Assembly: GCF_030734285.1 (NCBI RefSeq)
Contig: NZ_CP132294.1
Coordinates: forward strand, 2,666,001-2,730,000
Source of the DNA: Natronococcus sp. AD-5
Lineage (GTDB): Archaea; Halobacteriota; Halobacteria; Halobacteriales; Natrialbaceae
Direction: 5' to 3'
DNA length: 64,000 bases
The translations under genes were made by a program, and so were the position numbers. Below, in pieces: positions 28,673 through 37,355 of this stretch (positions within the stretch are counted from its first letter, which is position 1; each line of letters opens with the position of its first letter). Below the pieces are notes generated by a model. That model did not search any database, was not told the origin of the DNA, and saw only the letters and a program-made list of their open reading frames with translations.

Positions 28673-30283
28673 ATGGACGAGGACCGGCGCTCGATCGAGA
28701 CCGATTCCTTCCCCGGAGACGAGGGGGTGGAAGCAGTGCTCGACCGTATCCCCGACGGCGTCTACGAGTTCGACACCGAGTTACGAAACCTCGTCGCGAA
28801 CGAGCAGGTGAGCGAACTCCTCGGAACCGAACGTGCGGGAGACGAGGCGACCGGGGAAGCGCTCCGTTCGCTGTTCGACGGGGCACACGAGCGAGCCCTC
28901 GAGCGGCGGGTGCCGGTGACCGTCGAGGCGTACCACTCGCCCACCGATACCCGGCTCGAGGCGCGTATCGCTGCCTCTCGGATCGGCGTGACCGGAACCG
29001 TCCGGGACGTGACCGAACGGAGGGCGCGCGAGCGGCGGTTCGAACGCCAGCGCGATCGGATGGAAGCGTTGAACAACGTCTATACCGTTATGCGGGCGAT
29101 CAACGACGCGATCGTTACCGGATCGGCACGGGACGAACTCGAGCGGGTCACCTGCGAAACGCTCGCCGATACGTCATCCTACGAGTTCGCGTTCGTGGCT
29201 GCAATCGACTCGAAAACGGGAGACGTGATCCAGCGAGTCGAAGCGGGAATCGAGGGATACGTCGAGAGCATCCCGCTTTCGACAGATCCGAACGAGCCGG
29301 CGGGTCGCGGCCCGGCGGGACGTGCGATCCGGACCCAGCAGCTACAGGTGTCGAACGACGTCTTCACCGATCCAGATTTCGAACCCTGGCGCGAGGACGC
29401 CTACGAGCGCGGCTACCAGTCGGCCGCTGCGATCCCGATCGTCCACAGCGGTGGACTGTACGGCGTTCTCGGCGTCACGAGCGCGCACCGACACGCGTTC
29501 ACAGCCGAGGTACGGGAAGGGATCGGCCAGCTCGGAGAAATTCTCGGCCACGCGATCGCCGCACTCGAGCGTAAGCGCGCGCTGATGGGAGACGAACTGA
29601 TCGAACTCGAGTACGAGATTCGGAACGCGGTCGACATATTCGACGGACCACCGATGGCCGATCAGTACGTCTCCTTCGAGCGCGTCGTACAGATCGACGA
29701 GGAACGGTTCCTCGAGTACGGCGTCGCGGCGGTCGAGGCGTTTCCGAACGTGGAGGAACTGACCGAATGCGTCCCCCACTGGGAAGACGTGGCGGTGCTC
29801 GATGAGTCGGCCGGGGAGGTCACGTTCGAACTCACGATCACGTCGCCGCCGATGTTCTCGGTCGTCGCCGCACACGGCGGCTACGTCGAGTCGGCTGCCA
29901 TCAACGGCGGCGACTACACGATGACGATTCACCTGCCGAAGAGCACGGACGTACGCGCCGTGACCGAGGCGATTCAGTCCGTGTATCCGAAAGCGACGAA
30001 CATCGCTCGGCGACAAGTGAGACCCTCTAACGAGTCGATCGCACAGATTCAGGACCACCTGTACGGAGTATTAACCGAGCGTCAGCGAACCGTCCTAGAA
30101 ACGGCCTACTACGCCGGCTTCTTCAACTGGCCCCGGAACAGTTCCGGCGAGGACGTCGCGACGACGCTCGAGATTACGCCGGCGACGTTTCACGAGCACC
30201 TCCGATCGGCCCAGCAGAAGATCGTCGAAGCAGTCTTTAACGAGCCGGATACGACGCGCGGAGGTTCTGATAGGACCGAGTGA
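28673..30283 (+). CDS. PAS-GAF-Bat-HTH-10 transcriptional regulator
   Basis: The protein has 536 residues. Residues ~20-120 resemble a PAS domain (VLDRIPDGVYEFDTELRN, ending VTGTVRDVTERRARER). After a coiled linker comes a GAF domain (~145-305: SYEFAFVAAIDSKTGDVI, GRGPAGRAIRTQQLQVSND, YQSAAAIPIVHSGGLYGVLG). Residues ~320-455 are the Bat domain and ~465-530 HTH-10 (LTERQRTVLETAYYAGFFNW, EITPATFHEHLRSAQQKIVE). Same design as the bacterio-opsin activator, which responds to light and oxygen. The upstream ~70 bases are AT-rich (28599-28614) with a further TATA-like CTTATGTA at 28635. No opsin gene is in the window. Confidence 0.92.
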   Translation: MDEDRRSIETDSFPGDEGVEAVLDRIPDGVYEFDTELRNLVANEQVSELLGTERAGDEATGEALRSLFDGAHERALERRVPVTVEAYHSPTDTRLEARIAASRIGVTGTVRDVTERRARERRFERQRDRMEALNNVYTVMRAINDAIVTGSARDELERVTCETLADTSSYEFAFVAAIDSKTGDVIQRVEAGIEGYVESIPLSTDPNEPAGRGPAGRAIRTQQLQVSNDVFTDPDFEPWREDAYERGYQSAAAIPIVHSGGLYGVLGVTSAHRHAFTAEVREGIGQLGEILGHAIAALERKRALMGDELIELEYEIRNAVDIFDGPPMADQYVSFERVVQIDEERFLEYGVAAVEAFPNVEELTECVPHWEDVAVLDESAGEVTFELTITSPPMFSVVAAHGGYVESAAINGGDYTMTIHLPKSTDVRAVTEAIQSVYPKATNIARRQVRPSNESIAQIQDHLYGVLTERQRTVLETAYYAGFFNWPRNSSGEDVATTLEITPATFHEHLRSAQQKIVEAVFNEPDTTRGGSDRTE

Positions 30284-30336
30284 GCGCCGTCGTGCGACCT
30301 CACGGGATTCAGTACGACGCCGACAAACTACCAGGT

Positions 30337-30389
30337 ATGCAGACCCACATCGTTCCGGTCGGCTTCGACTACGACCGGCTGATCTCGCC
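30337..30389 (+). repeat. Truncated duplicate of the 5' end of the DUF6293-type regulator gene
   Basis: The 53 bases starting with the ATG at 30337 match 33299-33351, the first 17-18 codons of the complete regulator gene, with only about three substitutions; both begin MQTHIVPVGFDYDRLI. After 'gatctcgcc' the two sequences diverge fully and the frame is soon lost, so this copy is a dead gene end. The upstream sequences are unrelated. The two copies bound the low-G+C segment with asnB, which points to a past insertion or recombination at this gene. Confidence 0.8.
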
Positions 30390-30433
30390 TTATTGGGCCT
30401 GTATCCCTCGTTTCGGGTTTCTCGGAGACACCA

Positions 30434-30478
30434 ATGCAAGACCGAAAACTCGAGCCGATTGCACCGGGTGAAGCAGTC
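30434..30478 (+). pseudogene. Possible N-terminal relic of a tyrosine recombinase
   Basis: The frame from the ATG at 30434 reads MQDRKLEPIAPGEAV and then loses sense. LEPIAP(x)2A(V/L) close to the first Met is how many haloarchaeal phage-type integrases begin, from memory. It sits right inside the left edge of the asnB island, 45 bases after the truncated regulator copy. The match is short, so the assignment is tentative. Confidence 0.35.
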
Positions 30479-30815
30479 ATTTCTCGCTCACTGGGTGGGT
30501 GCGACCTACTACCTCTATCAGAAACCGATTCCGAGTGCGGCGATCGGCTCCGGCCTCTGGATAACGGCACTCGTGATGTTGCTCACACCCGTCCTCTTCT
30601 ATCTGCCCGTTATCATCGGCGAGGGTGCCGGCGAAAGCGCTGAAGCAACTGGAACGTTCATCGGCGGCATTCTCGACCTCATCATCTGGGAAATCGCGTT
30701 TGCCGTCGGGGCGATCATCGTCGCTGCTATCGGTTGGGCGTTTAAGCGTCGAGCACGTAACAAGGTCGGGAGCGAAGCGAACCGAGCACCTCGCGAGGCC
30801 TCTCCCGGTCGCTAG
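30468..30815 (+). CDS. Small two-helix membrane protein
   Basis: The protein has 115 residues from the GTG at 30468; an upstream start in the same frame would run through the duplicated and relic DNA. It has two hydrophobic helices, ~28-50 (GSGLWITALVMLLTPVLFYL) and ~68-92 (GGILDLIIWEIAFAVGAIIV), then a basic tail. The last ~20 residues come from a repeat-like sequence (gcgaagcgaaccgagc) and may not be conserved. It converges with asnB, the two stops overlapping by 4 bases. Unknown function; it may be real or a by-product of the insertion. Confidence 0.5.
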   Translation: MKQSFLAHWVGATYYLYQKPIPSAAIGSGLWITALVMLLTPVLFYLPVIIGEGAGESAEATGTFIGGILDLIIWEIAFAVGAIIVAAIGWAFKRRARNKVGSEANRAPREASPGR

Positions 30816-32719
30816 TGAGTGATCGTTGGATGGATCTCACTCGTCGGAGAACCAATAATAGCGGTTTCAGCATCAATAAACGTATGATACCATGCGACGT
30901 ACGTGAGGATCATCCAGAGCGTTCGACCGACCGATTTGTCACCACGACGATGAGCATCTCGCAATGCGATGGCTTCGGTGGCGTCGATGTACGGCGTATT
31001 GCTGAGCTTCTCCCGGGTGAACCAGGTTTCGATCGATCCGTGTTCGCCACGGAACCACCCTTCGACGGGCGGTCGCATTCCCATCTTTTTTCGGTTGAGA
31101 ATCTCCTCCGGGAGAAGATCACTGACAGCATGCTTGAGCACCCGCTTAGCGTCCTGATCCGTCACCTTGTATTGGACCGGCAGTGAGCGAGCGAACTCCA
31201 CGATCTCGGCCGACAAAAACGGGACCCGGGCCTCGAGCGAGTGGGCCATACTCATATGGTCGGCTTTGTAGAGATGGTAGTCGGGGAGCGTGTAGCTCGT
31301 TTCGAAGGCTGTCATATGTTGTTCGGGAGTGGGGTCGTCGATCCGGGTCGTTATTCTACTGACGCTCGACCGGAGGCCCGATGTATCAGCAGTTTCGCCC
31401 GTCTCGAGGAAGTCCTCCGGCTCGGGGCGGAAGGGCATGAACCCACAGGTGTTGTGGAGTATCAGCTCCGTGTTATCTTTTAGCCACGAGAAGTACCTGA
31501 GATGTCTCTTCCCGATCGGCGAAATCGGAGCGACGGAACCCGCGATATCGTGGGTGAATTCCGGGAGGAAATCGACTTTCCGTTTATACTGCGATGGCTG
31601 GCGGTAACGCGGATACCCGGCGAACAACTCGTCGGCGCCTTCGCCTGCGAGGGCGACTTTCACGTCTTCGCTGGCACGTTGAGAGAGGGCGTAGATGGGA
31701 AGCATCTGGAGGTGACCAGTCGGTTCTCCGAGCGACCGTATCATCTCGCCAAATAGATCCATCGACGAGAGGTCAACACGGACTTCGTGGTGATCGGTTC
31801 CGAAATGATCTGCGACGAGACGCGCCTCTTCACTCTCATCGAGTCTATCGTCGGTAAAGGAGATCGAGTAGGTCTTGAGCGGTTCGTCCGTTACGTTCGA
31901 CGCGATACCGACGACGGCGGAGGAGTCAAGCCCACCCGATAGAAACGCTCCGACCGGGACGTCTGCCATGAGGCGCCGCTCGACCGACCGCTCTAACAGG
32001 TCTGCCAATCGGTCGGCCGCACTCGAGAAACTCATCGTTGCGCTACCGGTCTCGACGTCGAGCAGGCACCAATACGCCCGTTCCGCGATTCCATCGGGAC
32101 CGATTCGCACCGCATGGCCCGGTTTCACCTTTCGAACGTCCCGTAAGAGGGTCTGAGAACCCGGCGTGTACTCGAGTGAGAAGTGATTGAAAACGGCTGC
32201 TGGATCGAGTGTTCGATCGACCCCGCCGATCAGCAGTGCCGGAAGCTCGCTCCCCCAGACGTAGCCGCGTTCCGTCTGGCCATAGTACAGCGGTTTAATG
32301 CCAAGACGATCACGGGCGAGGAAGACCGCGTTCGCGTTCTCATCCCAGAGAGAGAACGCGAACATTCCCTCGAGGTGAGTGACCATCTCCTCACCGTACT
32401 CTTCCCAGAGGTGGACCAACACCTCGGTATCGGACTGACTGCCGAACCGATGTCCCCGCTGTTCGAGTGACTCTCGTAAGGCAGCGTGATTGTAGATCTC
32501 TCCGTTGAAGACGACACCGACCGTCTCGTCTTCATTGAACTCTGGCTGCGAACCGCCGGCAAGATCGACGATCGAGAGGCGACGCGACCCCATCATCACC
32601 CCGGCGTCTCGATCGATATACGTCCCCTCTTCGTCGGGGCCGCGATGTTCGATCCACTCTAACATCGATGAGAGCGTGCTCTTATCGGTCCACCCATATG
32701 TACCGGTAATGCCACACAT
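30812..32719 (-). CDS. asnB: Asparagine synthetase, glutamine-hydrolysing
   Basis: The protein has 635 residues from the ATG at 32719, which places Cys directly after Met (MCGITGTYGW). That Cys is the class II glutaminase nucleophile, so this start is decisive over an ATG 18 bases upstream. The glutaminase domain (~2-200) shows IEHRGPDEEGT, SRRLSIVDLAGGSQP and GVVFNGEIYNH. The synthetase domain has the PP-loop FLSGGLDSSAVVGIAS (~255), SISFTDDRLDES and GEGADELFAGYPRYR (~365). It makes Asn from Asp, Gln and ATP, or amidates another substrate; relatives sit in surface-polysaccharide clusters. Codon third positions are visibly richer in A/T than in flanking genes, suggesting transfer. Confidence 0.95.
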   Translation of the reverse strand: MCGITGTYGWTDKSTLSSMLEWIEHRGPDEEGTYIDRDAGVMMGSRRLSIVDLAGGSQPEFNEDETVGVVFNGEIYNHAALRESLEQRGHRFGSQSDTEVLVHLWEEYGEEMVTHLEGMFAFSLWDENANAVFLARDRLGIKPLYYGQTERGYVWGSELPALLIGGVDRTLDPAAVFNHFSLEYTPGSQTLLRDVRKVKPGHAVRIGPDGIAERAYWCLLDVETGSATMSFSSAADRLADLLERSVERRLMADVPVGAFLSGGLDSSAVVGIASNVTDEPLKTYSISFTDDRLDESEEARLVADHFGTDHHEVRVDLSSMDLFGEMIRSLGEPTGHLQMLPIYALSQRASEDVKVALAGEGADELFAGYPRYRQPSQYKRKVDFLPEFTHDIAGSVAPISPIGKRHLRYFSWLKDNTELILHNTCGFMPFRPEPEDFLETGETADTSGLRSSVSRITTRIDDPTPEQHMTAFETSYTLPDYHLYKADHMSMAHSLEARVPFLSAEIVEFARSLPVQYKVTDQDAKRVLKHAVSDLLPEEILNRKKMGMRPPVEGWFRGEHGSIETWFTREKLSNTPYIDATEAIALRDAHRRGDKSVGRTLWMILTYVAWYHTFIDAETAIIGSPTSEIHPTITH

Positions 32720-33298
32720 CGATCGCCAGATCCGCATCTCGTATCATTGTAAAGTTGTACTTTCTCTACTTCAGTACATTCATAACTACATTAGTTTGCA
32801 GTCCTACTATTCCGCATAGACCACAATATCATCAAAAATTCGAGTTATACGGTCGGACGTATGACTGCTCTTGCTACCCCCTCTACGAAATCTAATCCGG
32901 ATCGATTCCGGGGATTTCGCCTATCGGTATTAGGAGGGGAGTTCCGAAACTCTCGGTATTCGTTAGTAGCTGCGAGAAAGAGACCGAAGACGAGATACCG
33001 CGGTTAGAGGGCCGAGACGACTCGGATGCCTTCCCTCCTATTCCTCGTTATCGGTTTCGTTGTCGTCACCGGTCTCATCGTCACACTCGACTCGCTGTCG
33101 ATCGGTTAGTCGATTCAGGTAGGCTCGAGTCCGATATGAGTCTAACAAGTTTTGAAATCGATGTACAGCGGCGGGATCGGGACGGAAGCAAGGGCCAACA
33201 GCAATGGTGTGGAAGTGAACGGTGCTTGATCTGCCAGATAGTATTAAAAATCCCTGCAGATCAACACCATTACGGCGCCTACCTCGCAAAGAGAAGAT
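32720..33298. other. Intergenic region of ~580 bases, low G+C, no gene supported
   Basis: The left half (32740-32860) is the AT-richest part of the window and should hold the asnB promoter, which reads leftward. The middle has no plausible gene; an open frame reading leftward over 33038-33200 ends in an acidic tail (DDETGDDNETDNEE) but has no recognisable start or fold. The right 80 bases carry the regulator promoter with its inverted repeat (33226-33264). The segment is part of the foreign-looking island. Confidence 0.6.
33226..33264 (+). promoter_or_regulatory. Promoter of the DUF6293-type regulator with a perfect inverted repeat around the TATA box
   Basis: TTGATCTGC (33226-33234) and GCAGATCAA (33256-33264) are perfect 9-base arms. 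Between them lies ATTAAAAA (33243-33250), a good archaeal TATA element ~50 bases ahead of the ATG at 33299. Adding outer bases, GGTG/CACC pair as well with one unpaired base. A dimeric regulator bound here would cover the TATA element, so autoregulation by the downstream gene product is a natural guess. Confidence 0.6.
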
Positions 33299-34207
33299 AT
33301 GCAAACCCACATCGTCCCGGTCGGCTTCGACTACGACCGGCTGATCGCGCCGCTGGTGCGCGATCAGATCGACGTCGACCGCGTCATCCTGCTCGAGGGG
33401 GCCGTCGGCAGCGAGGCCAACGTCGAGTACTCGCGGCACCTCTCGAAGAAGCTCGAGACGGACTTCCGGAACCTGCTCGGGGCCGAGACCGACCGGTTCG
33501 TCCTCGAGGACGTCTACGACTACGACGACGCGTTCGAGCAGGCGTACGGCCTCATCACCGCCGAACTCGACCGCGGAAACGACGTCTGGGTCAACGTCGC
33601 CGCGATGCCCCGGACCGTCAGTTTCGCGTTCGCGACGGCGGCCCACTCCCTGATGGTCGAGCGCGAGGACGACCGCGAGGCGATCCACACCTACTACACC
33701 GCCCCGGAGAAGTACCTCGAGACCGAACTCGCCGAAGAGCTTCGCGAGCAGATCGGCCTGCTCGAGGATCTCCGAGCGCGATCTGGCGACGAGGAGCGGA
33801 TCGCGACGCGACTCGAGAGCGCTCGCTCCCTGCTCGCGGAGTTCGACGAACGCGGCACGACGATCGGCGCGAAGGAGATCGACGGCCAGCACGTCGTCGA
33901 ACTCCCCGTCGCGTCGTTCTCGAACGTCAAACCGTTCGAGGAGCTCATCCTCTACAAGCTCGGCGAGGACGGCGAGTTCGACTCCGTCTCCGAACTCGCC
34001 GAGTCGCTGGCCCGCGAGCTGAACGAGGAGTACACCGACAGCTTCCGCTCGAAGGTCATCTACAACGTCGACCGGCTCGGCCCCGGCGGGAAGGGCTACA
34101 TCGAGCGCGAGGAACACGGGAAGTCCTACCGGACGCGTCTCTCGAGGATCGGGGAGCTGTGGGTGCGAGCGCACTCGGATACGACGCCCGCACCGGAGGA
34201 CCGGTGA
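33299..34207 (+). CDS. HFX_2341/DUF6293-type transcriptional regulator with CARF-like N domain
   Basis: The protein has 302 residues. It starts MQTHIVPVGFDYDRLIAPL; VILLEGAVGSEANVEYSRHL and VNVAAMPRTVSFAFATAAHS follow. This Rossmann-like order, with a ligand loop after the fourth strand, resembles the CARF fold of Csa3-type regulators. The C-terminal ~100 residues (VASFSNVKPFEELILYKLG, RSKVIYNVDRLGPGGKGYIE) are a winged helix. Such proteins are annotated as a haloarchaeal regulator family named after a Haloferax gene. No CRISPR or nucleotide-cyclase gene is near. A truncated copy of its first codons lies 3 kb upstream, and its promoter has a 9-base inverted repeat. Confidence 0.83.
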   Translation: MQTHIVPVGFDYDRLIAPLVRDQIDVDRVILLEGAVGSEANVEYSRHLSKKLETDFRNLLGAETDRFVLEDVYDYDDAFEQAYGLITAELDRGNDVWVNVAAMPRTVSFAFATAAHSLMVEREDDREAIHTYYTAPEKYLETELAEELREQIGLLEDLRARSGDEERIATRLESARSLLAEFDERGTTIGAKEIDGQHVVELPVASFSNVKPFEELILYKLGEDGEFDSVSELAESLARELNEEYTDSFRSKVIYNVDRLGPGGKGYIEREEHGKSYRTRLSRIGELWVRAHSDTTPAPEDR

Positions 34208-34580: not shown

Positions 34581-37355
34581 ATGAGCGCGGACGCCGACGC
34601 TCGCGAACGCGAGCGCGACGAGGCGAGCCTCGAGGGCGGCTACGACCCTGAAGCGGTCGAATCCCGATGGCAGGACCGCTGGGTCGACGAGGGAGTCTAC
34701 GCCTACGACGGCGACCCCGAGCGAGATCCGAACACCGTCTACGCGATCGACACGCCGCCGCCGACGGTCTCGGGTAGCCTACACATGGGCCACCTCTACG
34801 GCTCCACGCTACAGGACTTCGCGGCGCGGTTCCAGCGGATGCACGACGGCGAGGTGCTGTTCCCCTTCGGCTACGACGATAACGGAATCGCGAGCGAACG
34901 CCTGACCGAAGAGGAACTCGACATCCGCCACCAGGATTACGAGCGCCGCGAGTTCCAGGAACTCTGTCGCGAGGTCTGCCAGGAGTACGAGGCCGAGTTC
35001 ACCGACAAGATGCAGGGGCTCGGCTGCTCGATCGACTGGGACAACACCTACAAGACGATCGAACCCCGCGTCCAGCGCATCTCGCAGCTCTCGTTTCTCG
35101 ATCTCTACGAGAAGGGCCGCGAGTACCGCAAGAAGGCGCCCGCGATCTGGTGTCCCGAGTGCGAGACGGCGATCTCGCAGGTCGAGATGGAAGACGACGA
35201 GCGAGGCTCGCACTTCAACGACATCGCCTTCGAAGTCGTTGGAGACGGTGCGGACCGCGAGGAGTTCGTCATCTCCACGACGCGACCCGAACTGCTGCCC
35301 GCCTGCGTCTCCGTCTTCGTCCACCCCGACGACGAGGAGAACCAGGATCTCGTCGGCGAGACCGCTCGCGTCCCCATCTTCGGTCAGGAGGTCCCGATCA
35401 TCGAAGACGAGCGCGTGGACACGGAGAAGGGCAGCGGGATCGTCATGTGCTGTACCTTCGGCGACCAGAAGGACATCGAGTGGTACCAGGCCCACGACCT
35501 CCCGCTTCGCGTGGCGATCGACGAATCCGCGACGATGACCGACCTCGCCGACGAGTACGAGGGGCTCACGACCGAACAAGCCCGCGAGGCCATCGTCGAG
35601 GATCTCGACGACGAGGGCTACCTCCGCGACCGCTGGGAGATCTCCCACGCCGTTCAGGTCCACGAGCGCTGCGAGACGCCGGTCGAGTTCCGCGTCTCGA
35701 AGCAGTGGTACGTCGAGATCTTAGATCATAAGGAGGAGTACCTCGAGGCCGGCCGGGAGATGGACTGGTACCCCGAGAAGATGTTTACCAGATACCGCCA
35801 CTGGATCGAGGGCCTCGAGTGGGACTGGCTGATCTCCCGCCAGCGCGACTCGGGGATTCCGTTTCCCGTCTGGTACTGTACCGAGTGCGATCACGAGGTC
35901 ATGGCCAGGCGCGAGGATCTGCCCGTCGACCCACTGAGCGACGAGCCGCCGATCGACACCTGTCCCGAGTGCGGGAACGACGCGTTCGATCCGGAGGAGG
36001 ACGTCTTCGACACCTGGGCGACTTCCTCGCTGACTCCCCTCATCAACGCCGGCTGGGACTGGGACAAGGAGGCCCACGAGTTCGCGATGGAGAACCCCGA
36101 ACTCTACCCGTTCGACCTCCGACCCCAGGGCCACGATATCATCTCGTTCTGGCTGTTCCACACCATCGTCAAGTGCTACGAGCACACCGGCGAGGTGCCG
36201 TTCGACGCGACGATGATCAACGGCCACGTCCTGGACGAGAACCGCGAGAAGATGTCCAAGTCGAAGGGCAACGTCGTCGAGCCCGACGAGGTGCTCGCCG
36301 AGTATCCGGTCGACGCGGTTCGCTTCTGGGCCGCCAGCGCGGCGGTCGGGGACGACTTCCCGTACCAGGAGAAGGACCTCACGGCGGGCGAGAAGCTCCT
36401 GCGGAAGCTCTGGAACGCCTCGAAGCTCGTCGATACCCTCGCGCCCGCCGATCCCGACGAGCCCGCCGAACTCGAGGCGATCGATCGCTGGCTCCTCGCG
36501 GAGCTCGACGACGCGATCGACGAGCTGACCGCCCAACTCGAGGCCTACGAGTTCGCGAAGGCCCGCGACCGCCTGCGGACGTTCTTCTGGAACACCTTCT
36601 GCGACGACTACCTCGAGATCGCCAAGGAGCGCGAGGATAACCCCTCGACGCAGTACGCGCTGCGGACCGCCCACCGCACGTTCCTCGAGCTGTGGGCGCC
36701 GTTCCTGCCGCACGTCACCGAGGAGATCTGGCAGGCGTTGTACGCGAACGAAAACGACGGCCTCGACGAGACCAGTCTCCACACCCGCGAGTGGCCCGCC
36801 CCGCAGGGGTACGAGGCCGACCTCGAGGCCGGCGAGACCGCGATGGAGGTCATCTCGGCGCTGCGACGCTACAAGAGCGAGAATCAGCTGCCGCTGAACG
36901 CCGACCTCGAGGCCGTCTCGGTCTACGGCCCAGTCGAAGGCTTCGAGGACGCGATCCGGAACGTGATGCACGTTCAGGACCTCGACGTGCTCGAGGAGCC
37001 CCCGGAGATCACGACCGAGGTCGCCGCGATCGACCTCGACTACTCGACGCTCGGTCCCCGGTACGGCTCGAAGGTCGGCGACATCGACGCCGGCATCGAG
37101 AGCGGCGAGTACGAGATCGTCGAGGACAGCGCGGAGCCACGCTCCGCGGACGATTCGAGTAGCGCGGAACGAAGGTCCGCGGACAGTCGAGCGGCGCAGC
37201 CGCGAGACGACGGCGACGAGCCGCGAGAAGGAGGCGTGCTGCGGGTCGCCGGCGAGGAACTCGAGGACGACCTGTTCGAGGTCGAACTCGAGCGGACGTA
37301 CTCGGGCGAGGGCGAGATGCTCGAGACCGACTCGGCCGTCGTCATCCTCGAGTAG
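34581..37355 (+). CDS. valS: Valyl-tRNA synthetase
   Basis: The protein has 924 residues. Class I signatures are PPTVSGSLHMGHLYG (HIGH motif, ~58-72) and ENREKMSKSKGNVV (KMSKS, ~553-566). The editing domain lies between them, and WCPEC/CTECDHEV with CPECGNDAF are zinc-binding pairs. The anticodon-binding domain covers ~640-780. The enzyme charges tRNA-Val. Residues ~850-884 are an insertion (SAEPRSADDSS, SAERRSADSRA and a basic patch) encoded by palindromic repeat units; ordinary homologues do not have it as far as I know. Sequence after it (VLRVAGEELEDDLFEVEL) resumes the family C terminus, so the insertion is in frame. Confidence 0.97.
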   Translation: MSADADARERERDEASLEGGYDPEAVESRWQDRWVDEGVYAYDGDPERDPNTVYAIDTPPPTVSGSLHMGHLYGSTLQDFAARFQRMHDGEVLFPFGYDDNGIASERLTEEELDIRHQDYERREFQELCREVCQEYEAEFTDKMQGLGCSIDWDNTYKTIEPRVQRISQLSFLDLYEKGREYRKKAPAIWCPECETAISQVEMEDDERGSHFNDIAFEVVGDGADREEFVISTTRPELLPACVSVFVHPDDEENQDLVGETARVPIFGQEVPIIEDERVDTEKGSGIVMCCTFGDQKDIEWYQAHDLPLRVAIDESATMTDLADEYEGLTTEQAREAIVEDLDDEGYLRDRWEISHAVQVHERCETPVEFRVSKQWYVEILDHKEEYLEAGREMDWYPEKMFTRYRHWIEGLEWDWLISRQRDSGIPFPVWYCTECDHEVMARREDLPVDPLSDEPPIDTCPECGNDAFDPEEDVFDTWATSSLTPLINAGWDWDKEAHEFAMENPELYPFDLRPQGHDIISFWLFHTIVKCYEHTGEVPFDATMINGHVLDENREKMSKSKGNVVEPDEVLAEYPVDAVRFWAASAAVGDDFPYQEKDLTAGEKLLRKLWNASKLVDTLAPADPDEPAELEAIDRWLLAELDDAIDELTAQLEAYEFAKARDRLRTFFWNTFCDDYLEIAKEREDNPSTQYALRTAHRTFLELWAPFLPHVTEEIWQALYANENDGLDETSLHTREWPAPQGYEADLEAGETAMEVISALRRYKSENQLPLNADLEAVSVYGPVEGFEDAIRNVMHVQDLDVLEEPPEITTEVAAIDLDYSTLGPRYGSKVGDIDAGIESGEYEIVEDSAEPRSADDSSSAERRSADSRAAQPRDDGDEPREGGVLRVAGEELEDDLFEVELERTYSGEGEMLETDSAVVILE
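37129..37203 (+). repeat. Tandem ~32-base palindromic units inside valS
   Basis: Two units, 37129-37160 and 37161-37192, share AGCGCGGA...TCCGCGGAC...TCGAG and each contains a hairpin: CGCGGAG/CTCCGCG around a 5-base loop and CGCGGA/TCCGCG around a 7-base loop. A third small hairpin, GCGGC-GCA-GCCGC, follows at 37191-37203. The array is a multiple of three and stays in frame. It looks like a mobile or expandable short palindromic element tolerated in the protein. Confidence 0.7.

What the first reader, a model, noticed from the sequence alone, without database searches (positions are those of the whole stretch)
33226..33264. Nine-base perfect inverted repeat enclosing the TATA box of the DUF6293-type regulator gene
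TTGATCTGC and GCAGATCAA flank ATTAAAAA, with further imperfect pairing outside (GGTG/CACC). A chance 9-base perfect pair placed exactly around a TATA element is unlikely. It fits an operator for a dimeric regulator, most simply the product of the downstream gene. The truncated copy at 30337 lacks it, so the site may have come with the newer copy.
Basis: partly seen in the sequence, partly recalled or inferred. Interest (0 to 1): 0.55.

Follow-up and report, generated by a model that had tools for sequence, protein, structure and literature searches.

The report
Mobile element swaps a regulator's promoter
The palindrome lies in a promoter carried on the end of a decayed mobile element that inserted into the start of a CRISPR-related repressor gene (crr) in a salt-loving archaeon; related elements, several with restriction-modification genes, have done the same in other species, each time giving the host gene a new promoter.

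Summary
The 9-bp inverted repeat is real (33226-33234/33256-33264, 21-nt loop), but by itself only modestly unusual: 34 of 3000 local shuffles have one as good, and the window holds 42. It is absent upstream of crr in all 8 other genomes of the genus and in 96 single-copy genomes. It lies at the right end of a 2.96-kb insertion between two copies of the 5' end of crr (HFX_2341 family, CARF fold). The 'truncated copy' at 30337 is attL, next to the native promoter; the intact gene starts at attR and now has an element-borne promoter. Similar arrangements recur in haloarchaea: all 9 close relatives of one tyrosine integrase sit just after a crr 5' copy, and several elements carry restriction-modification genes. 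The closest relative (G333) shares both ends of the window insert and a 6-bp core of the palindrome. Other elements have a covarying dyad centred on the TATA box at -27, which host promoters lack. Best reading: a promoter-replacing integrative element; the palindrome may be this lineage's version of the promoter dyad, binder unknown. Whether integration changes Crr levels or CRISPR activity is untested.

The parts
28673..30283 (+). GAF/BAT/HTH_10 (bat-like) regulator gene, native upstream neighbour of crr
   Evidence: Pfam; in 8 of 8 other genus members the sequence runs from here straight into crr
30303..30336 (+). Native crr promoter region, now cut off from the intact gene
   Evidence: Matches crr upstream of genus members and of G333 attL
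30337..30389 (+). attL: truncated 5' end of crr (about 18 codons)
   Evidence: Blast block with genus crr genes ends at 30389, or 30384 in one; copy of 33299-33351 with 3 mismatches in +1..+50
30355..30378 (+). Core dyad CCGGTCG-N10-CGACCGG in attL (likely recombinase core sites)
   Evidence: Only 2 matches in the window, this and 33317-33340; 0.05 expected
30434..30479 (+). Stub of the integrase gene start (MQDRKLEPIAPGEAV), rest missing
   Evidence: 84.8% over 178 bp (30303-30479) to the G333 element, whose integrase is intact
30480..33182 (.). Interior of the insert: small membrane-protein ORF (30393-30815 +) and asparagine synthase gene (30812-32737 -)
   Evidence: No match to the other fetched elements; 30480-30771 is 86% identical to another place in G004; the asnB stretch matches other family genomes
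33183..33225 (+). Right-end block of the element
   Evidence: 84% over 219 bp (33183-33399) to G333 right end; 82% over 107 bp, E 1e-22
33226..33264 (.). The reported palindrome, arms 33226-33234 and 33256-33264
   Evidence: against G333: left arm 7/9, right arm 8/9, loop 12/21 identical
33265..33275 (+). CACCATTACGG: candidate TATA region of the current crr promoter, about -31 from ATG
   Evidence: CAACACCATTAC at the same place in G333, G053 and G395; promoter role inferred
33299..34207 (+). crr (HFX_2341 family), intact; attR is its first ~53 nt
   Evidence: NF051475, 576.5 bits vs cut-off 500; HFX_2341_N + DUF7776; CARF fold
33317..33340 (+). Core dyad CCGGTCG-N10-CGACCGG in attR, inside crr codons 7-14

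Best explanation
The palindrome is part of the promoter region at the right end of a decayed integrative element. A tyrosine recombinase integrated the element into the 5' end of crr, most likely by crossing over inside a dyad (CCGGTCG-N10-CGACCGG) in codons 7-14. This left a truncated 5' copy with the native promoter on the left (attL) and an intact crr with an element-borne promoter on the right (attR). In the excised circle the same promoter would face the integrase gene, so integration moves it from integrase to crr (inferred from the map). In this genome the integrase is reduced to a 15-codon stub and the element is stuck. Shown: insertion, duplicated core, empty sites, homology of both ends to the G333 element, integrase next to attL in relatives (about 0.95). 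Inferred: the palindrome works as this lineage's form of the dyad found over the TATA box in other elements, as a binding site for a dimer (about 0.4), the binder being the integrase, an element winged-helix protein or Crr.
For: Empty site: in 8 of 8 other genus members the bat-like gene and crr are adjacent; the window matches break at 30384-30389 and resume at 33298-33299. Recurrence: 12 of 293 order genomes have two copies of the crr 5' end, all same strand, 1.6-20.9 kb apart. Integrase: the 7 hits at 570-779 bits (392 genomes searched; next hit 440) all follow a crr 5' copy, 0 of the next 13 do; in a second, named collection 4 of 34 loci do, two of them new, giving 9 of 9 close integrases. 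G333 shares both ends with the window insert. Core dyad: perfect in both att copies of 12 of 14 carriers, with 1 mismatch in G278 and 2 in G284; one of the 12 (G024) keeps it in attL by paired changes. Element promoter dyad at exactly -27.0: 51 of 72 pairs in 8 non-redundant elements, mean 37.8 when right arms are exchanged, 0 of 5000 reach it; 32 TATA-bearing single-copy promoters give 104 of 288 against 105.0.
Against: The window and G333 lack the -27 dyad (3 and 4 of 9 pairs), and their palindrome sits at -54, so equating the two is a guess. The palindrome is not preferentially conserved: arms 15/18 identical to G333, flanks 31/36 and 20/23. The right-end profile trained on the other elements scores the window at noise level (3.9 bits; best shuffle 5.9); its tie to the family rests on G333. 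The window insert has no integrase and its interior is ordinary host-type DNA. No free circle, plasmid or virus with this att or a close integrase was found. The permutation test ignores relatedness of the elements. No transcript data.
Confidence: 0.8

Rival explanations
1. Conserved autoregulatory operator: Crr dimers bind the palindrome round its own TATA box.
For: Crr has a CARF fold like the Csa3 dimers; published as a repressor of many genes (PMC11434293); a CTGGT half-site recurs just upstream of the TATA position (12-nt box starting at -40) in 26 of 96 single-copy crr promoters, 0-2 of 96 in boxes away from there, so something may bind host crr promoters.
Against: The palindrome is in 0 of 96 single-copy and 0 of 16 native carrier promoters; the recurring host half-site is CTGGT, not TTGATCTGC; the AT-rich centre of the loop is not the conserved promoter position.
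Confidence: 0.15
2. Chance repeat in an AT-rich promoter stretch, with no function of its own.
For: 42 such repeats in the window against 24.7 in shuffles; 34 of 3000 local shuffles have one; 9-bp perfection is lost in G333.
Against: Strand folding z -2.73; arms (15/18) are better kept than the loop (12/21) between two element right ends; other elements of the same kind do carry a selected-looking promoter dyad.
Confidence: 0.4
3. The second crr copy arose by ordinary homologous recombination or tandem duplication, not site-specific integration.
For: The window insert has no integrase and its interior matches host DNA found elsewhere; in one genome (G278) the duplication runs 41 bp upstream of the ATG and that insert carries no integrase.
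Against: Element ends shared with G333, which has an intact cognate integrase; same ~45-55-bp duplication starting near the ATG in unrelated genera; 9 of 9 close integrases sit at this site.
Confidence: 0.05
4. Transcription terminator or terminal inverted repeat of a small transposon.
For: A stem can form.
Against: No T-run follows it and no terminator-like site is called there; the repeat with its loop is single-copy in the genome.
Confidence: 0.02

Closest known systems
SXT/R391 elements in prfC (bacteria)
   Same: Integrate into the 5' end of a protein gene (passages of PMC4344509); that the host gene then gets a new 5' end and promoter is recalled, not read here
   Different: Conjugative, about 100 kb, translation-factor target; here 2.4-21 kb elements (G278 aside), target a CRISPR-related regulator in archaea
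pTN3-type integrases (Thermococcales)
   Same: Use the 5' half of the target, and the rebuilt gene is expressed from the integrase promoter (PMC8371274, passages)
   Different: Target is a tRNA gene and the integrase is split on integration; here a protein gene and an unsplit integrase
Archaeal elements in protein genes (thaumarchaeal elements; BJ1 virus; NitGar-E6)
   Same: Archaeal integrases with protein-gene attB (PMC8371274 section 19; PMC6563490 passages)
   Different: The 14 thaumarchaeal cases are in 3'-distal regions; none described in those passages replaces a promoter
HFX_2341 / crr of Haloferax mediterranei
   Same: Same regulator family; that locus is a self-spacer hotspot beside a putative transposable element (PMC11434293)
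   Different: The parts read do not describe an element inside crr; that gene neighbourhood was not examined here
Csa3a and the CAPPa palindrome (Sulfolobales)
   Same: CARF-wHTH regulator with a proposed promoter palindrome near BRE/TATA (PMC8699464, passages)
   Different: CAPPa is TCCC-N8-GGGA and conserved over Sulfolobales; binding there was nonspecific in vitro

Membership tests
Integrative element of a tyrosine recombinase | Direct repeats of the target flank the insert | tested here: met
   Window 30337-30389 / 33299-33351; 12 of 12 double-copy genomes on the same strand
Integrative element of a tyrosine recombinase | Empty site in close relatives | tested here: met
   8 of 8 genus members
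Integrative element of a tyrosine recombinase | Integrase gene next to att | tested here: met
   9 of 9 close integrases in relatives; two scanned: Phage_int_SAM_1 above its cut-off in both, Phage_integrase above in one and 0.2 bits below in the other; in the window only a 15-codon stub
Integrative element of a tyrosine recombinase | Dyad core site | tested here: met
   CCGGTCG-N10-CGACCGG twice in the window
Integrative element of a tyrosine recombinase | Circular form / excision | not testable with these tools
   No free form found in viral contigs or plasmids
HFX_2341 (crr) regulators | NF051475 above its curated cut-off | tested here: met
   576.5 bits vs 500
HFX_2341 (crr) regulators | CARF domain like Csa3 | tested here: met
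   Model pLDDT 68.8; Foldseek hits Cam1, Csa3, Can2, Csm6 at E 2e-5 to 1e-3; low overall confidence, TM normalised by query about 0.3
Conserved autoregulatory operator | Palindrome kept upstream of orthologues | tested here: not met
   0 of 96 single-copy genomes, 0 of 16 native carrier promoters
Conserved autoregulatory operator | Binding by the product | not testable with these tools
   No binding data can be made here

The most novel reading that the evidence does not exclude
A family of haloarchaeal mobile elements, several carrying restriction-modification systems, has evolved to integrate at the start of crr and to put this CRISPR-related repressor under the element's own, dyad-controlled promoter. 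Since over-expressed crr strongly lowers cas transcripts in Haloferax mediterranei (PMC11434293), integration would tune down the host's CRISPR-Cas immunity: the promoter swap would be a counter-defence device, and the palindrome its control site.
Probability: 0.25. Interest if true: 0.88.

Novelty: new variant of a known kind. Interest (0 to 1): 0.62.

Why it matters
Integration into tRNA genes usually rebuilds the target under its own promoter (PMC8371274). Here insertions in 11 genera of four families each give one specific regulator, a repressor tied to cas expression, a foreign promoter. It also bears on a question put in the archaeal recombinase review (section 19), whether protein-gene attB sites contain dyads: this one does, inside codons 7-14. 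The recurrence makes a direct test possible: compare crr and cas transcript levels in strains with and without the element.

Tried and rejected
Conserved-operator reading: upstream regions of 96 single-copy genomes, 15 element right ends and 16 native carrier promoters compared; palindrome not conserved. Best-axis palindrome test per promoter: weak for most, 2 of 15 elements at p<=0.05; replaced by a fixed-axis test, chosen after seeing that the axis was shared (92 half-step positions from -60 to -14.5 were scanned and -27.0 led with 6.38 of 9 against 3.5 for the next). Right-end profile search in single-copy promoters: only G130 clearly positive, so 'domesticated element promoters' is a lead, not a result. 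G278 (duplication reaching 41 bp upstream) was dropped from the dyad tests because its insert resembles the other elements at neither end. In the dyad test the 12 non-window-type, non-G278 right ends were cut to 8 to reduce redundancy. The 96 single-copy upstream regions are those I fetched out of 139 family members over the cut-off plus the genus. Free or viral forms: none. Terminator: none at the site. PDB sequence search with crr: no hit. tRNA targets for the more distant integrases: tRNA-like 3' ends seen by eye in some loci, but ARAGORN found no tRNA gene beside them, so not claimed. In one search the attL tally (11 of 15) mis-indexed G219, whose contig ends close by; one search gives all arms. 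The script stopped with an error after its tallies.

Full report
Observation. Its loop is 21 nt, and repeats of this quality are not rare: 42 in the window against a shuffle mean of 24.7, and 34 of 3000 local shuffles contain one. It is unique in the genome with loops of 10-30 nt.

The gene. The downstream gene is an HFX_2341 family regulator with Pfam domains HFX_2341_N and DUF7776. A model from 20 orthologues (mean pLDDT 68.8) matches CARF proteins, Csa3 among them. The family is found in 140 of 145 sampled haloarchaeal genomes, 139 over the cut-off. The one paper found on it (PMC11434293, parts 1-3 of 5 read) reports that deletion alters many genes, that over-expression strongly lowers cas transcripts, and that its binding regions remain to be identified; it proposes the name crr.

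The insertion. In 8 of 8 other genus members the bat-like gene is directly followed by crr. The window aligns with them up to 30384-30389 and again from 33298-33299, with the first ~53 nt of crr present twice. So the 'truncated copy' is the left junction with the native promoter, and the intact crr has a foreign upstream region that contains the palindrome.

It is recurrent. A degenerate pattern for the first 14 codons of crr, searched in 293 genomes of the order, found 257 with a match and 12 with two; all 12 pairs are on one strand and 1.6-20.9 kb apart. Several inserts begin with a tyrosine-integrase ORF 89-97 nt after the left ATG. Searching that integrase in 392 genomes gave 7 hits of 570-779 bits and then a drop to 440; all 7 follow a crr 5' copy, 0 of the next 13 do. 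Two of the 7 (G333, G361) were not among the 12, and both have a second copy downstream. Leaving out G278, whose insert looks different, the unnamed carriers are 13 genomes in 11 genera and four families. No viral contig or plasmid in the collections carries this att or a close integrase.

Anatomy. The duplicated stretch holds a perfect dyad CCGGTCG-N10-CGACCGG in crr codons 7-14, present exactly twice in the window and in 77 of 96 single-copy genomes in perfect form. In G024 the left copy keeps the dyad by two paired changes. Seen as a circle, right end + core + left end puts the right-end promoter in front of the integrase; this is inferred from the map, and resembles what is described for pTN3-type integrases (PMC8371274, passages).

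Cargo. Of nine ORFs from six elements tested, six matched restriction-modification or methyltransferase models in PADLOC (two subunits in G282, one ORF each in G219, G276, G122 and CBA1125); one more (G276) has only an HSDR_N match in Pfam, and two ORFs of G333 matched nothing. The nine were picked because they looked like such genes or were large, so this is no survey.

The window insert. It is a decayed member: its left 178 bp and right 219 bp match the G333 element at 84-85%, its integrase is a stub, and its interior is a membrane ORF and an asparagine synthase gene whose relatives lie elsewhere in other genomes (in G395, for example, 1.2 Mb from crr). Against this: a profile of the other right ends does not recognise the window (3.9 bits, best shuffle 5.9).

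The palindrome. Both 9-mers occur only in the window; G333 keeps a 6-bp core, with arms 15/18, loop 12/21 and flanks 31/36 and 20/23 identical. The stretch kept in G333, G053 and G395 is CAACACCATTAC to its right, at the usual promoter distance from the ATG (the usual distance in leaderless haloarchaeal genes is recalled). In the other element type a dyad is centred exactly on the TATA position (-27.0): 51 of 72 pairs in 8 elements against 37.8 when right arms are exchanged, 0 of 5000 as high; host promoters with a TATA box show nothing (104 of 288 against 105.0). Thus element promoters carry a dyad whose two sides change together while the sequence drifts (for example TCTGGTAC/GTACCAGA in G361 and GATGGTT/AACCATC in G219, sequences). 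The window palindrome, at -54, may be this lineage's equivalent; that step is a guess with about 40% support. The test ignores relatedness, and the axis was chosen after inspection.

Mechanism. Most likely: integrase-mediated insertion into crr, promoter exchange, later loss of the integrase. The dyad is probably a control site of the element's integrase promoter, left over crr after integration. Binder candidates are the integrase, an element winged-helix protein (HTH_45-like, 24.0 bits against a cut-off of 25.5) or Crr. Whether integration changes Crr levels or CRISPR-Cas activity is open.

Print. DUF6293 and HFX_2341 searches each gave the same single paper. Searches on haloarchaeal integrative elements and islands listed no title about integration at this gene, but only the papers named above were opened, so a description elsewhere cannot be excluded.

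Noticed in passing
L011-L040, L120-L179 (crr upstream regions): A CTGGT motif stands just before the TATA position in 26 of 96 single-copy crr promoters, almost absent at other positions: a possible host regulator half-site.
   Followed up: partly
G130, G082, G013, G012, G129 crr promoters: Some single-copy genomes have crr promoters resembling element right ends (G130 clearly by profile), as if element promoters were kept after the element was lost.
   Followed up: partly
L049 (G278): A different 1.6-kb insertion with a longer duplication that includes 41 bp of promoter, and a membrane-protein-like ORF.
   Followed up: no
L043, L044, L048: Three elements without an intact integrase (G024, G063, G284) carry ORFs that by eye look like FkbM-type methyltransferases or sulfatase-like proteins, perhaps comparable to the asnB of the window.
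   Followed up: no
L043 (G024) left att copy: Core dyad changed on both sides to CCAGTCG/CGACTGG in a copy freed from coding constraint.
   Followed up: partly
window 34581-37355: A valyl-type tRNA synthetase gene lies directly downstream of crr.
   Followed up: no
PMC11434293: In H. mediterranei the crr locus next to a putative transposable element is the strongest self-spacer acquisition hotspot; an element at crr could explain it, not checked.
   Followed up: no
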